Shown: in pieces, positions 37,728-57,851 of the stretch
Numbering within the stretch: position 1 is the stretch's first letter
Layout of the letters: each line of letters opens with the position of its first letter
IMG/VR virus record: IMGVR_UViG_3300018080_000129
Coordinates: 39,501-103,500 of that record
DNA length: 64,000 bases
Strand: one strand, 5' to 3'
Origin: a virus
Notes under the pieces: model-generated
Told to the model about the DNA's origin: nothing
Database searches by the model: none
What the model saw: only the letters and a program-made list of their open reading frames with translations
Translations under genes and position numbers: made by a program

Positions 37728-37763
37728 AAAAAAAAATGGGAAACACTCAGAGAATGCTTCCCA
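37728..37763 (-). terminator. Terminator of the TROVE-linked small RNA
   Basis: Minus strand TGGGAAGCA...TGTTTCCCA (9 pairs, one G-T) with a run of nine T. It separates the small RNA from the TROVE gene, though some read-through would reach it. Confidence 0.88.
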
Positions 37764-37922
37764 CTGCGTCCCGCCAGCAGACAGAATCTAATGGCGGCAA
37801 TGAAAAGAAATCTGAGTACCAATAAGCGCAGTAGCGGTTTCTTTCTCTATGATAGAAGTATGCCACTGCTGGAGCGTACTCTTTTCAATCCACACACTTT
37901 TATAAGTGCGACTCTATATTAA
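37764..37922 (-). ncRNA. Y-RNA-like small RNA (element a), upstream of the TROVE gene
   Basis: Transcript from about 37922 to the terminator, about 160 nt plus terminator. The Y-like module spans 37814-37881: outer stem GAGTAC/GTACTC, then an internal loop (GCTCCA on the 5' side, GCTTATTG on the 3' side), then an 8-bp stem GCAGTGGC/GCTACTGC, then ATACTTC. Outside it are hairpins GCACTT/AAGTGT near the 5' end and CCGCCA/TGGCGG before the terminator. The same geometry recurs in three RNAs near 52 kb. The 3' strand (CTACTGCGCTTATTGG) resembles the Ro-binding strand of animal Y RNAs. It has its own promoter and terminator. Confidence 0.7.
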
Positions 37923-37928
37923 CGTAAT

Positions 37929-37956
37929 ATTATACAGCAGAGTTCGAACTTTTCAA
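37929..37956 (-). promoter_or_regulatory. Sigma70-like promoter of the small RNA and TROVE gene
   Basis: Minus strand TTGAAA (37951-37956), 16-nt spacer, TATAAT (37929-37934). Only promoter seen between the glycosyltransferase gene and the TROVE gene; it drives the small RNA and, by read-through of the terminator, possibly the protein. Confidence 0.8.
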
Positions 37957-37976: not shown

Positions 37977-38867
37977 TCAAATAAACTTCAGCATGTGTTC
38001 TAACCTGTGTGTGTATAGATGCTTATGAATCACATCTTCGTAGCTCTTTTCTGCTAATTTTTCACGCTGCGCTTCGTTCTCAAGATAGAAACGAATTTTT
38101 TCTGCCCATTCCAAAATCACCTGCTCGATGTTTGAACTACTCGGAAGAGTCGTCTCGGCAATGAAATTCGCACCATGAATGTCCTTCAGCCCCTCACGAT
38201 ACGCCTGTATTTGAAAAGCTCCCGTTGCAGGAACATCGAACGTGCGGCACGGACAACCAAAAACCAACGAAGGGTTATATTGGTCTCCATCCTGCATTGG
38301 CGCAATCATTACTCGCGTCTGGTTGTAGAGAAGATTTATCTCGCGGTCGCTCATGCTCATTGAAAAACTGAATCTGCAATTCGGAAAAAAGCGACTGATT
38401 TCCTGAGCAAACCGAACCCTCCAAGGATGTGCGGCTCCAATCATTGCAATGTCATATCGTTTTTTGCATCTCGAAATCTGAAAGTAAGTCATCGGGTCGG
38501 CAGCAAGCGGAAGATACTCAACATGGTCTCCGTAGCCATGCGTTTTTGTATAAGAGAAATGCCTGTCCACCAGTTTCGTAATCCTACCTATTCTCTCTTG
38601 CCAGTGAGGAATCTCGTCATTATGCGTCCAGACAAAGAATTTGCATCGCTTTCTGAACCGTTCGACAAGAGAAGGTGTCAAGCCAAAACCCGCTGAACTG
38701 ATAACTACGTCCAGACCCAAAGGCATTTCTTGCGCTTGAACACCGCCCATAGAACCAATATAAGTCAATTCGTGCCCTTCTACCAGCACCGCATTGCCAA
38801 GAAATTCGGCAACGTAATCGGCACCATTGTTCTCCGTGACACCCGAATACATCACGCCAATTTTCAT
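37977..38867 (-). CDS. Glycosyltransferase-like protein (CgeB type)
   Basis: 296 residues from ATG 38867, where the start overlaps the radical SAM stop as ATGA; the frame runs to 38999 but within the neighbour. Rossmann-like N-half (KIGVMYSGVTENNGADYVAEFLG, DVVISSAGFGL) and a C-half phrase set (NPSLVFGCPCRTFDVPATGAFQIQAYREGL) that matches the CgeB/GT4-like group: a nucleotide-sugar pocket then a conserved E/R-rich helix. Such enzymes glycosylate surface polymers or proteins. It works in a cluster with the radical SAM and four-domain glycosyltransferase. Acceptor unknown. Confidence 0.65.
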   Translation of the reverse strand: MKIGVMYSGVTENNGADYVAEFLGNAVLVEGHELTYIGSMGGVQAQEMPLGLDVVISSAGFGLTPSLVERFRKRCKFFVWTHNDEIPHWQERIGRITKLVDRHFSYTKTHGYGDHVEYLPLAADPMTYFQISRCKKRYDIAMIGAAHPWRVRFAQEISRFFPNCRFSFSMSMSDREINLLYNQTRVMIAPMQDGDQYNPSLVFGCPCRTFDVPATGAFQIQAYREGLKDIHGANFIAETTLPSSSNIEQVILEWAEKIRFYLENEAQREKLAEKSYEDVIHKHLYTHRLEHMLKFI

Positions 38868-39859
38868 AGCAACTCCGAAAGAATCTTGTCTTCCACAAAC
38901 ACATGTTCCATTATCTCGTTCGGCTTGTTCATCACACAGCGGGGGCAATCTTCTATGTCTATCTCCGCAATTGCTCTTTTGTGCTCTTCGCTTCCCCAAA
39001 TGTCCTCCAATGCAAGATGATACAGGTCTCCGAAACGAAGGAACACATCTTGACAGACAATCAGTTCACCTGTTGCTGTCACTACACCATGCAAAGGAGA
39101 AGCTAAGCATTCCCTGTATTGCCTTTCACTCCAGTAACCATCAAACTTCTCTGAAATTGAGAAGAGCTTTACCTTCGTCAGCTTTTTTGCCGCCTCACAA
39201 AGATGATAAGCTGGCTCGATAATAGCCCGTACTTTCTCGTCCTGTCCCTTATCTCGAAAGTAAGCAGGGCGAATGTGAACGAAATCCGCTCCAAGCTCAT
39301 CAGCCAGCTTGCAGAACGAAAAAACATCCTGCCAATTATCATAACTCAAAACAAAGCCGAGTCCAAATGCAAGTCCCTTGCACCACATTCTCACATTGCG
39401 AATGTTTTCGACAATCTTGTGGAAACTATGAGTCCCTGTAATCAACTCGTGTGTTTCGGCGGTTCCGGCATTCAAACTCACACGCACTCGATTGAACATT
39501 GAAGCAATTTCCGGCGTCAATGCAATCCCATTCGTCGATAGCACCTTGAATCCATCAAAATACTTTACGTGAGATAGATAAGGATATAGAGTCGGTTCTC
39601 CTCCCCCGCTGACATGAATCGACTTGATGCCCATTGAATTTGCAGAAGCTATCAATCCCTGAAATACACTATCGCTGAGAGAAAATTCCTTCTTCTGCTC
39701 CTCTTTCATAATACAGAAATTGCAGTTCGAATTGCACCTGTTCGTAGGATAGATATGAAGAACTACAGGCGACTTGAAACGACCTTCCAAAATTGCTCTG
39801 CATTTATCAGCATAGAGCAACGTCTTCCATGAATTGAATTCATCAAACGTGTTGCTCAT
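38864..39859 (-). CDS. Radical SAM protein with SPASM-like tail
   Basis: 331 residues. The [4Fe-4S] motif is C42-x3-C46-x2-C49 (CNSNCNFC), with GGGEPT-type SAM-binding phrase SGGGEPTLYPYL, and downstream cysteines (CLASPLHG, CQDV, CPRC) suggesting a SPASM-like auxiliary cluster. Such enzymes modify peptides or sugars. It overlaps the glycosyltransferase genes at both ends, so it probably acts on the same surface component. The exact reaction cannot be told. Confidence 0.75.
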   Translation of the reverse strand: MSNTFDEFNSWKTLLYADKCRAILEGRFKSPVVLHIYPTNRCNSNCNFCIMKEEQKKEFSLSDSVFQGLIASANSMGIKSIHVSGGGEPTLYPYLSHVKYFDGFKVLSTNGIALTPEIASMFNRVRVSLNAGTAETHELITGTHSFHKIVENIRNVRMWCKGLAFGLGFVLSYDNWQDVFSFCKLADELGADFVHIRPAYFRDKGQDEKVRAIIEPAYHLCEAAKKLTKVKLFSISEKFDGYWSERQYRECLASPLHGVVTATGELIVCQDVFLRFGDLYHLALEDIWGSEEHKRAIAEIDIEDCPRCVMNKPNEIMEHVFVEDKILSELL

Positions 39860-44969: not shown

Positions 44970-47900
44970 TTAGAAGAACCTAAATGAATGGAGTCTTGCT
45001 TTTGAAGAACCACCAGCATCCTTCATCACCTGAATTTCAAAAATTGCTGCATCTGCTGGCAGGTTCGTCAACGTTGTGTCTTCATAAATTGCCATTACAT
45101 CTGATGTCCAAGAAATACTGGCAATCTCATTGTTATTTGTCACGTCATAAACTCGAAGCGTTACTGTTCCACTTGTTCCATTTCTTGAAGCAATAATGTT
45201 CATCGTAGTTGCTGTAACTTCGTTTGTCCCATTATACCAAAATTCTGCCGCTGCTTGCCATGTTGTAGAATTATACTCAACATAAGCTGTTGATGAAGTA
45301 TAGAACGACGTGCAAAACAAAGCACGTGAGTAAGACAAATCAGTGCCTTGATAACCCTGATTGCCTTGGTTGCCCTGCCAACCCTGATTACCTTGAAATC
45401 CTCTAAAACCTTGCCAACCTTGGAATCCTCTAAAACCTTGCCAACCCTGATTTCCTTGAGGGCCAACAATTCCTTGCCAACCTTGATTCCCCTGATAACC
45501 AATATCACCCTGCCAACCTTGCGCTCCCTGATTTCCAGTCTCACCTACTTCGCCTTGGAAACCTTGCCAACCTTGATTTCCTTGAGAACCCGTATCGCCT
45601 ATATTACCTTGCGGCCCTTGCCAGCCCTGATTACCCTGTACGCCATCAGAGCCTATGTCACCTTGTGGCCCCTGTACGCCATCGGCTCCCACGTCACCCT
45701 GCCAACCCTGATTTCCTTGGACACCAGTGTCACCGATGTCACCCTGATTTCCCTGATAACCAATGTCACCCTGATTTCCTTGAACGCCAGTATCACCAAT
45801 GTCACCTTGCGGCCCTTGTACTCCTATTTCTCCTTGTAAACCTTGCCAGCCTTGATTTCCTTGATTACCCTGAACACCATCAGAACCTATGTCACCCTGT
45901 GGCCCTTGAACACCGTCAACCCCAATGTCGCCTTGTGCGCCTTGATAACCAATATCTCCTTGATTACCTTGATTGCCTTGGACACCGATTTCGCCTACAT
46001 CTCCTTGGAATCCTTGGTCGCCTTGATAACCTATGTCACCCTGCCAACCCTGATTGCCTTGAACCCCCGTATTACCAGTGTCACCCTGAAGTCCTTGCCA
46101 ACCTTGTGGCCCCTGAACACCATCAACACCGATGTCACCTTGCCAACCCTGAACACCTTGTACGCCTGTTTCACCTACATCGCCCTGATTTCCTTGGCGT
46201 CCCTGATTCCCTTGCGTTCCATCAATACCTTGGTCGCCCTGCCAACCCTGATTACCCTGAAAACCAACATCTCCCTGATTTCCTTGGACACCAGTTTCGC
46301 CTATGTCACCTTGCGGCCCTTGAACGCCGTCAACACCAATGTCACCCTGTGGCCCTTGGACGCCAGTATCACCTATATCACCTTGTGGCCCTTGTGTGCC
46401 CGTGTCACCAGTGTCACCCTGAAGCCCTTGCCAACCCTGTGCGCCTTGCAAACCAGTATCGCCAACATTACCCTGATTGCCTTGCGCACCCTGAACACCT
46501 GTATCGCCAGTGTTTCCTACATTTCCTTGTGGGCCTTGAACACCCGTATCACCAGTATTTCCTACTTCACCTTGTGGGCCTTGTACTCCCTGAACACCAT
46601 CAGAACCAATATTGCCTTGCCAACCTTGACTGCCTTGATTTCCTTGTACGCCGTCAGAGCCGATGTCACCTTGTGGGCCTTGAACACCGTCAACACCGAT
46701 GTCTCCCTGCCAGCCCTGATTGCCTTGTACGCCGTCAGCACCAACGTCTCCTTGGAATCCTTGGTCGCCTTGATAACCTATATCACCTTGCCAACCCTGA
46801 TTTCCTTGAACACCCGTATCACCAGTATCACCCTGTAAACCTTGTGGGCCTTGGAAACCAATATCGCCCTGATTGCCTTGGACACCATCTTGTCCTACAT
46901 CACCCTGCCAACCTTGAACACCTTGGAAACCAGTATCGCCCACATCGCCCTGATTTCCCTGTACGCCTTGAACACCGTCAAGACCAATCGCACCTTGAAA
47001 TCCTTGACGACCTTGATTTCCTTGTGGGCCTATATCTCCTATGTCACCCTGATTGCCCTGAACACCGTCATTACCCTGCGGCCCCTGAACACCGTCAGCA
47101 CCGATGTCACCTTGGAATCCTTGTTCGCCTTGCCATCCTTGTGGGCCTTGCCATCCTTGCGGTGAGTAACCCTGTGGCCCCAAGTAACCCTGATTGCCCT
47201 GATAACCTTGAGAGCCAACATCACCCTGAAAACCTTGCGTTCCATCAATACCGGCAGGCCCTTGAGAACCCTGATTTCCCGTCCCTTCAATACCTTGTGG
47301 GCCTATGTCACCCTGCCAGCCCTGATTGCCTTGGACACCCGTATCACCAGTATCACCCTGTAAACCTTGTGGGCCTTGGAAACCAGTATCACCAACATCC
47401 CCCTGATTACCTTGGACACCCTGAATCCCTGTGTCCCCTACCGCACCTTGACTTCCTTGGCGTCCTTGATTTCCTTGAACTCCATCTTGTCCTACATCAC
47501 CCTGCCAACCTTGAACACCTTGTACGCCGTCAGCACCAATATTTCCTTGTGGCCCTTGAACTCCATCAGCACCAACATCACCCTGTGGCCCTTGAACACC
47601 GTCAATACCGATGTCTCCCTGTGGCCCTTGAACCCCGTCAATACCGATGTCACCTTGAGGCCCTTGAACTCCATCGGCACCGATGTCTCCCTGTGGCCCC
47701 TGAACACCGTCAATACCGATGTCTCCCTGTGGCCCCTGAACACCGTCAATACCGATGTCACCTTGATTTCCCTGTGCGCCCTGAACGCCAATTCCAATTG
47801 CGCCTTGCCAACCTTGCCAACCCTGATTACCCTGAACACCATCCTGTCCTACGTCTCCCTGCCAACCTTGAGCACCTTGAAGACCAGCAGAGCCTACATC

Positions 47901-50036
47901 GCCCTGATTTCCTTGGCGTCCCTGATTCCCTTGCGTTCCATCAATACCTTGGTCGCCCTGCCAACCTTGAACACCCTGTACGCCATCAGAGCCTATGTCA
48001 CCTTGTGGCCCCTGTACGCCATCGGCTCCCACGTCACCCTGTGGCCCTTGAACACCGTCAGAACCCGTGTTTCCTTGAAATCCTTGGTCGCCCTGCCAAC
48101 CTTGAACACCCTGTACGCCATCAGAGCCTATGTCACCTTGATTTCCTTGGAAACCAGTCTCTCCTTGCACACCCTGAACACCAGTATCGCCAATGCTACC
48201 TTGAAAACCTTGACGGCCTTGCGCACCTTGGTTTCCAGTAACACCTACAGCACCTTGATTACCTTGCGCCCCTTGTACGCCATCAAAGCCAATGTCACCT
48301 TGGAATCCTTGTGCCCCTTGTACGCCGTCAAAACCTATATCTCCCTGATTGCCTTGGTTGCCCTGAACACCATCAATGCCTTGGTCGCCCTGCCAGCCCT
48401 GTGCGCCCTGAACACCTGTTCCCTGATAGCCCTGTGCTCCTTGGAAACCAATATCACCCGCGACACCCTGATTTCCTTGAACACCATCGACGCCAATATC
48501 TCCCTGCCAACCTTGAACTCCTTGCGCTCCAGTATCGCCAATGGCTCCCTGATTACCCTGACGACCTTGAAAACCATCGGCACCATCTGCACCAATATCT
48601 CCCTGATTACCCTGATTTCCCTGAACACCATCGACACCAATGTCTCCTTGTGGGCCTTGAACACCATCAGAACCGATGTCTCCCTGTACGCCCTGAACAC
48701 CATCGGCTCCGATGTTTCCTTGTGGGCCTTGAACACCATCGGCTCCGATGTCTCCTTGTGGGCCTTGCCTTCCTTGCGCTCCTGTGTCACCCGCGTTACC
48801 CTGAAATCCCTGACGACCCTGATTGCCTTGAACTCCGTCGGCTCCGATATTCCCCTGCGGGCCTTGCCAACCTTGAGGAGAGTATCCTTGTGGCCCTAAG
48901 TAACCCTGATTGCCCTGATAACCTTGTGAACCAACATCGCCCTGAGCACCCTGCGTTCCATCAATACCGGCAGGCCCTTGAGAACCTTGCTGTCCTATGC
49001 CAACATTACCCTGATTTCCCTGTGGGCCAAGGTCGCCAACATCTCCTTGATTTCCCTGTACCCCATCATTACCTTGCGGGCCGACATCTCCAAGACCCTG
49101 CCAACCTTGAGCACCTTGAACTCCATCAACGCCTATATCTCCTTGCGGGCCTTGAACACCGTCAACACCGATGATTCCTTGATTGCCCTGCCAACCTTGA
49201 TTTCCTTGAGCACCTGTCTGCCCGACGTTTCCTTGGCTCCCCTGCCATCCCTGAACACCCGTGTCGCCAATGGCTCCCTGATTGCCTTGCCGTCCCTGAT
49301 TTCCCTGAACACCATCCGCTCCAGTGTTTCCTTGCGGGCCTTGAACGCCATCGACGCCAACCGGCCCCTGCCAACCCTGATTTCCCTGCGCTCCGAGAGT
49401 GCCCGCCCCATAATCGTACCAGATAACATCCAGAAAATGATTCCAATCGAGGTTTTTGAACATCCTCGATACAGCAACAAAAGCAAGGTCGATGTCGGCA
49501 GTCGAAGTGAAATTGTAAGCGGATTCAACACCGCCATTCCACGTGTACCAGCCTATCGTGTAAGTGCCAGCAGCGAAACTCAAACGACCGTAAACCGCAT
49601 TACCGCTGCCGTCGGTTATCGGGTCGCCGGAATCATGGTCTCGAATGAAAATACGATAAGCTCTGGTCGAGTCAACGATGACGCCTTCAACCGTCGAGGA
49701 ACCTTGACCATTGTTATGATTCGTGATGCCTTTAATCGCACCATCAAACACGGTCGTGCTGGTTCCCGCTCCTATCGTGACGTTCTCAAAAGCGGCTTGA
49801 TGCAACGCCTCCATCAGGAACTTGTCAGCCAGTTCCTTCATGGAAAGTTCGGCAGGGTCATACCAATCGGGTTCTCCAATGAGATTTTTCAGGAGTGTGC
49901 GCAAGACATTCAAGTCGCCTTCAATATTGACTTGGCCTTCCGCGACAGCCACAGTATGAACGGCTGCAATCGTGTCATCGTAAGTTGCCGAAGCCGCAAC
50001 CTGAATTGCCTGTCTGAGAATGCTCGTATCACCCAT
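44970..50036 (-). CDS. Giant collagen-like fibre protein
   Basis: 1688 residues. Three parts: an N-terminal 210-residue domain (GDTSILRQAIQVAASATYDD..., AGTYTIGWYTWNGG), about 1350 residues of Gly-X-Y repeats with Gln at most Y positions (GPQGDIGADGVQG, GNQGWQGDQG), and a C-terminal 120-residue beta domain ending ARLHSFRFF. Collagen-like stalks form trimeric triple helices in phage fibres. Proline is scarce and Gln very frequent in the repeats, unlike animal collagen. The repeats are only mildly diverged, suggesting recent expansion. It starts three bases after the previous gene. Confidence 0.9.
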   Translation of the reverse strand: MGDTSILRQAIQVAASATYDDTIAAVHTVAVAEGQVNIEGDLNVLRTLLKNLIGEPDWYDPAELSMKELADKFLMEALHQAAFENVTIGAGTSTTVFDGAIKGITNHNNGQGSSTVEGVIVDSTRAYRIFIRDHDSGDPITDGSGNAVYGRLSFAAGTYTIGWYTWNGGVESAYNFTSTADIDLAFVAVSRMFKNLDWNHFLDVIWYDYGAGTLGAQGNQGWQGPVGVDGVQGPQGNTGADGVQGNQGRQGNQGAIGDTGVQGWQGSQGNVGQTGAQGNQGWQGNQGIIGVDGVQGPQGDIGVDGVQGAQGWQGLGDVGPQGNDGVQGNQGDVGDLGPQGNQGNVGIGQQGSQGPAGIDGTQGAQGDVGSQGYQGNQGYLGPQGYSPQGWQGPQGNIGADGVQGNQGRQGFQGNAGDTGAQGRQGPQGDIGADGVQGPQGNIGADGVQGVQGDIGSDGVQGPQGDIGVDGVQGNQGNQGDIGADGADGFQGRQGNQGAIGDTGAQGVQGWQGDIGVDGVQGNQGVAGDIGFQGAQGYQGTGVQGAQGWQGDQGIDGVQGNQGNQGDIGFDGVQGAQGFQGDIGFDGVQGAQGNQGAVGVTGNQGAQGRQGFQGSIGDTGVQGVQGETGFQGNQGDIGSDGVQGVQGWQGDQGFQGNTGSDGVQGPQGDVGADGVQGPQGDIGSDGVQGVQGWQGDQGIDGTQGNQGRQGNQGDVGSAGLQGAQGWQGDVGQDGVQGNQGWQGWQGAIGIGVQGAQGNQGDIGIDGVQGPQGDIGIDGVQGPQGDIGADGVQGPQGDIGIDGVQGPQGDIGIDGVQGPQGDVGADGVQGPQGNIGADGVQGVQGWQGDVGQDGVQGNQGRQGSQGAVGDTGIQGVQGNQGDVGDTGFQGPQGLQGDTGDTGVQGNQGWQGDIGPQGIEGTGNQGSQGPAGIDGTQGFQGDVGSQGYQGNQGYLGPQGYSPQGWQGPQGWQGEQGFQGDIGADGVQGPQGNDGVQGNQGDIGDIGPQGNQGRQGFQGAIGLDGVQGVQGNQGDVGDTGFQGVQGWQGDVGQDGVQGNQGDIGFQGPQGLQGDTGDTGVQGNQGWQGDIGYQGDQGFQGDVGADGVQGNQGWQGDIGVDGVQGPQGDIGSDGVQGNQGSQGWQGNIGSDGVQGVQGPQGEVGNTGDTGVQGPQGNVGNTGDTGVQGAQGNQGNVGDTGLQGAQGWQGLQGDTGDTGTQGPQGDIGDTGVQGPQGDIGVDGVQGPQGDIGETGVQGNQGDVGFQGNQGWQGDQGIDGTQGNQGRQGNQGDVGETGVQGVQGWQGDIGVDGVQGPQGWQGLQGDTGNTGVQGNQGWQGDIGYQGDQGFQGDVGEIGVQGNQGNQGDIGYQGAQGDIGVDGVQGPQGDIGSDGVQGNQGNQGWQGLQGEIGVQGPQGDIGDTGVQGNQGDIGYQGNQGDIGDTGVQGNQGWQGDVGADGVQGPQGDIGSDGVQGNQGWQGPQGNIGDTGSQGNQGWQGFQGEVGETGNQGAQGWQGDIGYQGNQGWQGIVGPQGNQGWQGFRGFQGWQGFRGFQGNQGWQGNQGNQGYQGTDLSYSRALFCTSFYTSSTAYVEYNSTTWQAAAEFWYNGTNEVTATTMNIIASRNGTSGTVTLRVYDVTNNNEIASISWTSDVMAIYEDTTLTNLPADAAIFEIQVMKDAGGSSKARLHSFRFF
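45340..49410 (-). repeat. Collagen-like coding repeats (Gly-X-Gln)
   Basis: Roughly 4 kb of degenerate 9-18-nt repeats such as CCTTGTGGGCC and CAACCCTGATTACC on the plus strand, in frame with the collagen-like gene. They also create long, meaningless open frames on the plus strand, which should not be annotated as genes. Confidence 0.9.
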
Positions 50037-55308: not shown

Positions 55309-56184
55309 TTAAAAAATTAGAGCACCACTCTTCTGCCAGTCATAGCGCAAGTGATTATCAGGGCAGAAAATCAACTGCCGAATCTCTCCATCCTTGCTCG
55401 GATAGGTCAGGCAATTGTTCAGGCAGACATTCTGGTCGTTCAAGTCATAGACGACGGCTCCATGCGGCAATCGAAGCAACTCCGTCCCTTTCTTGCACAG
55501 AAACTCCTCCAGTCCGGCTTCCGCAGAACAAACCTTATGCTTGTCCACCCATTGTTTGACATGCTGACCTTTCCATGTTTCTTCCGGCTCCCCAAGTTCG
55601 CGCACTGTCAACTGGTCAACCTTCAAATCCCTACAAACCTCAACAAGCTTCTTCAGGCGGTCAACATTGTCCACATGGCCCTTGCAAATGACACAGGAAA
55701 CGCGAACCATGAAACTATGCTGCTTGAGAATTCTGCATGATTCGTTCCAGTTGAATTTCGGTTTGTTGTCCGTCATCAAACGAGCATTGTTCTCAGGCTC
55801 GATGTCTCCTATCGAGAGACACACAGAAGTCAGACCAAAATATTTCCAAGTCTCCAGATAACGATTCTGGAAATCATCATCCTCGAAAACAATGCCATTG
55901 GTCTGCAACTCGATAAGAGGAAACTCATGCTGGCGCAAGACAGAAAGAAATGTCGTAATCTGCTGTGGAAAAAGAGTAGGCTCACCTTTGCCGGTGAAAA
56001 GGGCGGTTGTGATACCATGTGCTCTTGAATACCTACAAGCCGCTTCGAATGCTCTCCAATCGACAACTGGAAGCTCTTTCTCCATGCCAAAGCTTGGCGT
56101 CATCTTCGAGACGCAATAAGGGCATCTGGCGTTACAAGCGCGTGAACCTGTCACAATGGAAAGAGTTGTCGCCTCAATTTTCAT
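55309..56184 (-). CDS. Radical SAM protein
   Basis: 291 residues. [4Fe-4S] motif C17-x3-C21-x2-C24 (CNARCPYC), a GKGEPTLFPQ phrase for SAM, and a C-terminal cysteine region (CLNNCLTYPSKDG, FCPDN). Typical of MoaA-like and peptide-modifying enzymes. Partner unknown; a receiver gene lies downstream and a small unknown gene upstream. It starts at ATG 56184. Confidence 0.7.
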   Translation of the reverse strand: MKIEATTLSIVTGSRACNARCPYCVSKMTPSFGMEKELPVVDWRAFEAACRYSRAHGITTALFTGKGEPTLFPQQITTFLSVLRQHEFPLIELQTNGIVFEDDDFQNRYLETWKYFGLTSVCLSIGDIEPENNARLMTDNKPKFNWNESCRILKQHSFMVRVSCVICKGHVDNVDRLKKLVEVCRDLKVDQLTVRELGEPEETWKGQHVKQWVDKHKVCSAEAGLEEFLCKKGTELLRLPHGAVVYDLNDQNVCLNNCLTYPSKDGEIRQLIFCPDNHLRYDWQKSGALIF

Positions 56185-57159: not shown

Positions 57160-57515
57160 TGGTGGAGGCGGCGAGGAGTCGCACCTCGCGTCCAGTGGTG
57201 CTCTCGATAGGGCGTCTACACGCTTATCCAGTTGATTCTATATCTCGGCTCATCTGGCAAGCCTCAGGCGGCTGTTTACCCGCCACGTCAGGCCGTCTTT
57301 CCAGCCTGCCAACCTGTCTTTCCAAGCTGCCAGCCCTTGTGTCGTACCCTATTCCCGCTTACTAAGGACGAATCTCAACGGTTTTGGGGCTGCCTAAGCA
57401 GCGATTCTGTAGGAGTTGCCAAGTAAATGGCATAGTCGGCTTTTTACGAGGCCAACCGACCAACCTCGACGTGCAGCCATTCTCGATACGCATCCTGTCG
57501 ATACTACGCGCCCCC
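57160..57515 (-). ncRNA. ssrA: tmRNA
   Basis: 356 nt with encoded CCA. Acceptor GGGGGCG/CGCCTCC pairs fully. The conserved stretch GGTTGGCCTCGTAAAAAGCC of pseudoknot 1 matches known tmRNAs. The tag frame (57394-57420) reads GNSYRIAA followed by TAG in the loop of GCTGC/GCAGC. The T arm is GCGAGG-TGCGACT-CCTCGC, 6 bp with G at loop position 2, unlike standard TTC. The tail half has two copies of a GAAAGA hexaloop hairpin (57291-57306 and 57312-57327). tmRNA rescues stalled ribosomes and tags proteins for proteolysis. Confidence 0.93.
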
Positions 57516-57522
57516 AATTGTC

Positions 57523-57551
57523 GTTTCAATCCACGCCCTCACACGGGCGAC
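57523..57551 (-). promoter_or_regulatory. Solitary CRISPR-repeat-like element (type I-C-like)
   Basis: A single 29-nt repeat-like unit. On the minus strand it starts GTCGCCC, has a GCCC/GGGC-type stem, and ends GCGTGGATTGAAAC, the 3' end of type I-C repeats. The stem is about three bases shorter than usual 32-nt forms. There is no second copy, spacer or cas gene. It lies 7 nt upstream of the tmRNA 5' end and in the same direction. Solitary repeat units like this in phages are reported as RNA-based anti-CRISPRs. Confidence 0.7.
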
Positions 57552-57559
57552 TAACGTTT

Positions 57560-57851
57560 ACTCTCACGCGCCTTAAAAAGGAAAAGAAAAGTAAGGAAGA
57601 TAGTGGTGTTTCATCATCGACGCATCCGTTGGAGGATTTTCAACCTCTTTTGCTCCATTGCTTTTTTTACTAAATCAATGCCGTCTTTCCGGCTGTCAGC
57701 GAGACTAAATATCTCGCTTACCAATAATTTTTTTAGAGCAATGGAGCTTATTTCACGGATAAGCAAAAGCCCTTCGCTAACTGCTCGAAGCGTCTCCCAC
57801 CTACCCTACACTCTCCCAACCCACGCTTGCAATCATGGGCTGTCCTTTTCT
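57560..57851 (-). ncRNA. Unknown structured RNA upstream of the CRISPR-like repeat
   Basis: From the promoter at 57858 to the repeat. An 11-bp stem GCTCCATTGCT/AGCAATGGAGC encloses A-rich linkers, hairpin AGCGAGA-TATTTAG-TCTCGCT and hairpin GCCG-GAAAGA-CGGC (57680-57693). The phrase TCTCGCTGACAGCC resembles TTTCGCTGACTGC of element d near 52.3 kb, suggesting a shared module. No open frame of note. It may be a separate small RNA or a leader of the tmRNA transcript. Confidence 0.55.

What the first reader, a model, noticed from the sequence alone, without database searches (positions are those of the whole stretch)
57523..57551. Solitary type I-C-like CRISPR repeat directly upstream of the tmRNA
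Seen: a 29-nt unit with a GCCC/GGGC stem and the GTGGATTGAAAC end of type I-C repeats, no second copy, no cas genes, 7 nt before the tmRNA. Known: solitary repeat units in phages have been reported as RNA-based anti-CRISPRs (Racr) that misassemble Cas complexes. The unusual feature is the fusion to the tmRNA 5' leader, so that an abundant processed RNA would release the decoy.
Basis: partly seen in the sequence, partly recalled or inferred. Interest (0 to 1): 0.87.

Follow-up and report, generated by a model that had tools for sequence, protein, structure and literature searches.

The report
CRISPR-repeat decoy fused to phage tmRNA
A large uncultured bacterial virus carries two lone copies of the repeat used by type I-C CRISPR immune systems, one of them built into the front end of its own tmRNA gene, most likely as RNA decoys that jam the host's CRISPR machinery; such decoys are already known, but riding on a tmRNA has not been described in the work I could find.

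Summary
On the minus strand, 57551-57523 is GTCGCCCGTGTGAGGGCGTGGATTGAAAC: a 5-bp stem plus the exact 11-nt type I-C 5' handle. It lies 7 nt before, and on the same strand as, an intact tmRNA (57515-57160, Rfam 88 bits). A loose I-C pattern has zero expected matches in the window and gives two. No Cas1 or Cas5d was found in the 103.5-kb viral record. Five relatives (terminase about 50% identical) have the tmRNA without the repeat, so the fusion is a lineage-specific gain. The sequence occurs exactly in none of about 85,000 species genomes, but 29-nt I-C repeats of the same form exist in true arrays. About 180 solitary I-C-type viral units have covarying stems; three other phages have one 16-25 nt before a tRNA. 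Best reading: an RNA anti-CRISPR (Racr-type) candidate against type I-C, co-transcribed with and probably trimmed off the tmRNA. Host, its CRISPR system and any inhibitory activity are untested. A new variant of a known kind.

The parts
57523..57551 (-). SRU1: solitary type I-C-like repeat GTCGCCCGTGTGAGGGCGTGGATTGAAAC. Stem 57549-57545 / 57538-57534, loop 57544-57539, 11-nt handle UGGAUUGAAAC 57533-57523. Predicted Cas5d cut between 57534 and 57533.
   Evidence: 11-nt Cas5d handle from PMC5965380
57516..57522 (-). 7-nt linker GACAATT between SRU1 and the tmRNA. Resembles the leader end GATAAT(T) directly before the tmRNA of relatives L190 and L194, so probably the ancestral leader end; can pair weakly with the handle.
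57160..57515 (-). tmRNA (ssrA), acceptor GGGGGCG...CCUCCACCA, 3' CCA encoded
   Evidence: RF00023, 88.4 bits, model 1-374; alignment. ARAGORN misses it.
57394..57420 (-). Predicted tag-coding stretch GGC AAC TCC TAC AGA ATC GCT GCT TAG (G-NSYRIAA-stop); the resume codon is inferred by comparison
   Evidence: inference from the ...AA-stop ending shared with relatives
57614..57766 (-). Small ORF (50 aa) upstream; 62 nt separate it from SRU1. No promoter-like site above chance lies between them, so SRU1-tmRNA is probably read from an upstream promoter.
37882..37912 (-). SRU2: second solitary type I-C-like repeat GTCGCACTTATAAAAGTGTGTGGATTGAAAA. Stem 37910-37904 / 37899-37893, handle 37892-37882.
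   Evidence: -6.8 kcal/mol, 7 bp
37929..37956 (-). Sigma-70-like promoter of the SRU2 small RNA: TTGAAA-16-TATAAT (11/12), ending 16 nt before SRU2
37735..37765 (-). Intrinsic terminator of the SRU2 small RNA: 13-14-bp stem followed by a T run
   Evidence: -17.8 kcal/mol, z -6.3

Best explanation
[quoted passage not shown] Each RNA shows Cas5d (the repeat-processing nuclease of I-C) a correct hairpin and 11-nt handle, but no phage-targeting spacer follows. Cas5d, and Cas7 loaded behind it, are tied up in unproductive complexes. SRU2 is made as its own small RNA. SRU1 is made as part of the pre-tmRNA transcript: RNase P, which matures tmRNA 5' ends, would cut after the linker and release a leader that ends with the repeat; or Cas5d cuts first, leaving its handle on the tmRNA. 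Shown here: the sequences, folds, orientation, distance, second unit with promoter and terminator, absence in relatives. From the literature: Racr inhibition of I-C, the 11-nt Cas5d handle, RNase P cleavage of pre-tmRNA. Inferred: that this phage's units bind Cas proteins, that the host has I-C, and that the leader is released and stable.
For: Two independent units with exact I-C architecture against zero expected; different stem sequences, both able to pair. No Cas5d or Cas1 in the record. SRU2 has the promoter-repeat layout described for Racrs (for PMC10651486). About 180 other solitary viral units keep the handle, and their stem pairs covary: 123 of 134 unforced positions pair, shuffled mean 77, maximum 92. 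RacrIC1 inhibits I-C experimentally. Bona fide I-C arrays use repeats with the same stem base and handle, down to 29 nt, and three of the four such genomes checked encode Cas5d. RNase P processes pre-tmRNA in bacteria (PMC4919922). Cas5d leaves an 11-nt handle (PMC5965380).
Against: The host is unknown, and no exact match occurs in 84,980 species genomes. SRU1 has no promoter of its own above chance, so its level depends on the operon. In the 36-nt leader the handle can pair with the linker (about 1 kcal/mol), which might hinder Cas5d. The near-identical contigs are the same phage (99.98%), so there is no independent conservation of SRU1. No expression or binding data. Solitary I-C-like units also occur as part of dispersed chromosomal elements in some bacteria, so the sequence shape alone does not prove an anti-CRISPR role.
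Confidence: 0.62

Rival explanations
1. SRU1 is a Racr-type unit that landed before the tmRNA by chance; the tmRNA merely supplies transcription and its processing plays no part. The working decoy is SRU2.
For: Solitary units occur in many kinds of intergenic position. Being within 10 nt 5' of any of this phage's 33 tRNA/tmRNA genes has a chance of about 0.011, of the tmRNA about 0.001. Over 185 viral units, 2 lie within 30 nt 5' of a tRNA against 0.55 expected, 9.6% of simulations reaching that: not significant.
Against: Three other phages (L016, L437, L500) have a unit 16-25 nt before a tRNA, so the leader of an RNase P substrate is a recurrent site.
Confidence: 0.22
2. SRU1 is a handle by which the phage uses host Cas5d to trim, or mark, the tmRNA: Cas5d cuts 18 nt before the tmRNA and helps maturation, or stays bound and poisons Cascade with a structured RNA.
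For: The predicted Cas5d cut (57534/57533) lies 18 nt before the tmRNA on the same strand; there is no nearby promoter or terminator, so the tmRNA must be cut out of a longer RNA.
Against: RNase P already matures tmRNA, and five relatives manage without a repeat. It would work only in I-C hosts.
Confidence: 0.06
3. SRU1 is a remnant of a CRISPR array, or part of a dispersed repeat family that resembles I-C repeats, with no present function.
For: A dispersed element ending in an I-C-like 29-nt unit exists in termite-gut betaproteobacterial genomes, up to 33 copies each.
Against: The conserved upstream stem-loop of that element is not before SRU1. SRU1 has an intact stem and handle. A second unit of different sequence with its own promoter and terminator is in the same phage. 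No array remnants lie nearby.
Confidence: 0.08
4. The hairpin is a chance or tmRNA-related processing signal that only looks like a CRISPR repeat.
For: Hairpins before tRNAs and tmRNAs are common (general knowledge).
Against: Zero expected matches, two found; five relatives' tmRNA leaders have no such hairpin.
Confidence: 0.02

Closest known systems
Racr / solitary repeat units (Camara-Wilpert et al. 2023, PMC10651486), in particular RacrIC1
   Same: Solitary CRISPR-repeat unit in a phage, no adjacent cas genes, I-C subtype, hairpin and handle kept; SRU2 also has promoter and terminator.
   Different: SRU1 is transcribed as the 5' leader of a tmRNA rather than as its own small RNA or behind an acr gene. 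The words tmRNA and tRNA do not occur in the main text of that paper. Two different I-C units sit in one phage. Inhibition is not tested here.
Type I-C CRISPR repeats (Cas5d substrates)
   Same: GTCGC start, stem from position 3, 11-nt UGGAUUGAAAC handle; some true arrays have 29-nt repeats of this form (L326).
   Different: Single copies, no spacer, no array, stem of 5 bp; most I-C repeats are 32-33 nt.
Phage-encoded tmRNA (ssrA)
   Same: Full-length RF00023 match, encoded CCA, short tag ending ...AA
   Different: Leader carries SRU1; the tmRNAs of five relatives do not.

Membership tests
RNA anti-CRISPR (Racr), type I-C | Unit resembles the CRISPR repeat of a known subtype in sequence and fold | tested here: met
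   same stem base and handle as I-C arrays
RNA anti-CRISPR (Racr), type I-C | Solitary: no second or partial repeat nearby, no cas genes | tested here: met
   nearest other unit 19.6 kb away; Cas5d, Cas1 absent
RNA anti-CRISPR (Racr), type I-C | Match to a known repeat of at least 90% identity and bit score at least 41.1 (SRUFinder rule) | not tested
   The SRUFinder repeat database is not on hand; SRU1 has no exact match in GTDB genomes. Rule read.
RNA anti-CRISPR (Racr), type I-C | Transcribed, promoter upstream | tested here: inconclusive
   SRU2: promoter 11/12 and terminator. SRU1: none above chance, presumably co-transcribed with the tmRNA.
RNA anti-CRISPR (Racr), type I-C | Host has the cognate CRISPR-Cas subtype | not testable with these tools
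   Host unknown; nearest named phage terminases are about 30% identical.
RNA anti-CRISPR (Racr), type I-C | Inhibits interference / binds Cas proteins | not testable with these tools
   needs an experiment
tmRNA | tRNA-like ends, pseudoknots, tag reading frame | tested here: met
   (88.4 bits, gathering 47); tag inferred

The most novel reading that the evidence does not exclude
Some phages hide CRISPR-repeat decoys in the 5' leaders of RNase P substrates (tmRNA here, tRNAs in L016, L437 and L500), so that maturation of a stable RNA during infection releases the decoy; this would be a production route for RNA anti-CRISPRs not described so far.
Probability: 0.3. Interest if true: 0.75.

Novelty: new variant of a known kind. 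Interest (0 to 1): 0.52.

Why it matters
If the leader is released as a decoy, it links two unrelated phage functions, ribosome rescue and escape from CRISPR immunity, in one transcript, and shows how a repeat mimic can be produced without a promoter of its own. SRUFinder scores matches to known repeats at 90% identity or more, so short or diverged units in RNA leaders could be missed. The locus is small and directly testable with existing type I-C laboratory systems.

Tried and rejected
(1) Related phages in GenBank by DNA around the tmRNA: none. (2) Host by exact repeat match in GTDB genomes: none; the looser scan found true 29-30-nt arrays but also many dispersed solitary units in termite-gut betaproteobacteria, which I considered as an origin of SRU1 and set aside because their conserved upstream stem-loop is missing here. 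(3) Other repeat-tmRNA fusions: a pattern scan of viral contigs for GATTGAAAC 10-40 nt before TCGACRGG gave 115 stretches; only the sister contig L019 is a real tmRNA fusion. (4) tmRNA next to other solitary units: of 50 virus records, two (G022, G057) have a full tmRNA, neither at a unit. (5) Enrichment of solitary units near tRNAs: 2 observed, 0.55 expected, not significant. (6) Upstream -10 boxes over all units: 19% against 14% in the downstream control, weak. (7) An IS200/IS605 transposase (PF01797) as mover of the dispersed element: transposases exist in some of these genomes but none has the element's ends.

Full report
What is there. The window is part of a 103,500-base viral record of an uncultured large phage with terminase, portal and head-protease genes, about 30 tRNAs mostly outside the window and a tmRNA. 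On the minus strand 57551-57523 reads GTCGCCCGTGTGAGGGCGTGGATTGAAAC. Seven bases later, same strand, the tmRNA begins: Rfam RF00023 matches 57515-57160 over the whole model with 88.4 bits; ARAGORN misses it. The encoded CCA, the acceptor pairs and a tag frame ending ...NSYRIAA-stop (57420-57394) suggest that the tmRNA is intact (the resume codon is inferred).

Not chance. The pattern GTCGC, 8-20 bases, GTGGATTGAAA is expected 0.00 times in the shuffled window and is found twice. The first is the reported unit. It stands between two genes with TTGAAA-16-TATAAT (11 of 12) ending 16 nt upstream and a strong intrinsic terminator about 120 nt downstream, the anatomy of a stand-alone small-RNA gene. 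The rest of the record (L176, L177) has no further unit. Cas5d and Cas1 models find nothing in it.

Architecture. In both units the helix starts at position 3 and is followed by exactly 11 unpaired bases, UGGAUUGAAAC or UGGAUUGAAAA. Cas5d, the processing nuclease of type I-C, leaves an 11-nt 5' handle (PMC5965380). SRU1 has a 5-bp stem and 29 nt in all, SRU2 a 7-bp stem and 31 nt. True arrays with 29-nt repeats of the same form exist (L326, GTCGCCCCGCATGGGGCGTGGATTGAAAC, 18 copies); three of the four genomes checked with such repeats encode Cas5d, and the L326 genome itself gave no hit.

Wider family. Scans of IMG/VR gave about 180 distinct solitary units of this kind. In those collected with a pattern that does not fix the inner stem, pairs 4 and 5 form in 123 of 134 cases against 77 (maximum 92) when the 3' arms are shuffled, so the hairpin is kept while its sequence changes. 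This agrees with the published view of solitary repeat units as RNA anti-CRISPRs: 2,103 on viral sequences, nine candidates tested, including RacrIC1 against type I-C (PMC10651486).

The fusion. A scan for such a repeat tail shortly before a tmRNA start found only this phage and its near-identical contig L019 (99.98% over 8.2 kb, so not independent). Five relatives found through the terminase (about 48-52% identity) have the tmRNA but no repeat before it. Two of them end their leader in TTTGATAAT(T) directly before GGG; here the linker is GACAATT, so the repeat probably came to sit just upstream of the old leader end (inference). A random intergenic position on the same strand lies within 10 nt 5' of the tmRNA with a chance of about 0.001, and of any of the phage's tRNA/tmRNA genes about 0.011. 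Other phages have a unit 16 nt before a tRNA-Leu (L016), about 17 nt before a degenerate tRNA-Arg (L437) and 25 nt before a tRNA-Gln (L500). Over all units this is not statistically enriched (2 against 0.55), so I treat it as precedent, not proof.

Mechanism. Most likely both RNAs are decoys for a type I-C host. SRU2 is produced alone. SRU1 has no promoter above chance nearby and must be read with the tmRNA. RNase P matures pre-tmRNA in bacteria (PMC4919922) and would free a leader ending in SRU1 plus GACAAUU; Cas5d could instead cut at 57534/57533 and leave its handle on the tmRNA. In the isolated leader the handle can pair weakly with the linker, which may or may not matter. In the studied I-F case the decoy ties up Cas6f and Cas7f in an aberrant complex; for I-C the corresponding proteins would be Cas5d and Cas7. 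None of this was measured here.

What remains open. The host is unknown: the best named terminase relatives are about 30% identical (an uncultured huge phage and a Tunturiibacter phage). No exact copy of SRU1 exists in 84,980 species genomes, which is expected for a mimic but also leaves the cognate repeat unidentified. I rate the decoy reading at 0.62 and the RNase-P-coupled production route at about 0.3.

Noticed in passing
   Followed up: yes
genome loci L325-L435 (for example L328, L340, L355, L346): Termite-gut betaproteobacterial genomes (Azoarcus-, Accumulibacter-like) carry up to 33 dispersed copies of a 113-118-bp element: left flank TTCAT, a conserved stem-loop, then a 29-nt unit identical in form to a type I-C CRISPR repeat, ending GATTGAAAC-AT. 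Cas5d was found in 4 of 13 such genomes; no mobilising transposase was found.
   Followed up: partly
viral loci L307, L035, L012, L269, L281, L268, L286, L486, L500, L526, L531: In 11 of 180 solitary viral units the sequence directly after the 3' end (offset 0-1) is an exact 8-34-bp copy of sequence a little upstream of the unit. Seen in a first set (8 of 123 at 10 bp or more, against 0.3 for mismatched pairs and 1.6 for random sites) and repeated in an independent set (4 of 57 at 8 bp or more and offset 0-1, against about 0.2). Looks like insertion with flank duplication; mechanism unknown.
   Followed up: partly
L016 4687-4564 (-), L437, L500 9993-9867 (-): Solitary I-C-type units 16-25 nt before tRNA genes on the same strand in three other phages.
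   Followed up: partly
L190, L192, L194 directly before the tmRNA: tmRNA leaders of relatives end in TTCTTTGA / CTCTTTGATAATT, which resembles rRNA boxA antitermination signals.
   Followed up: no
window 44970-50036 (-): 1688-aa protein made largely of collagen-like triple-helix repeats (PF01391, 14 stretches).
   Followed up: no
window 38864-39859 and 55309-56184 (-): Two proteins with weak matches to prokaryotic viperin models (E 1e-9 and 4e-8), the second also a Pfam radical-SAM match, in a phage.
   Followed up: no
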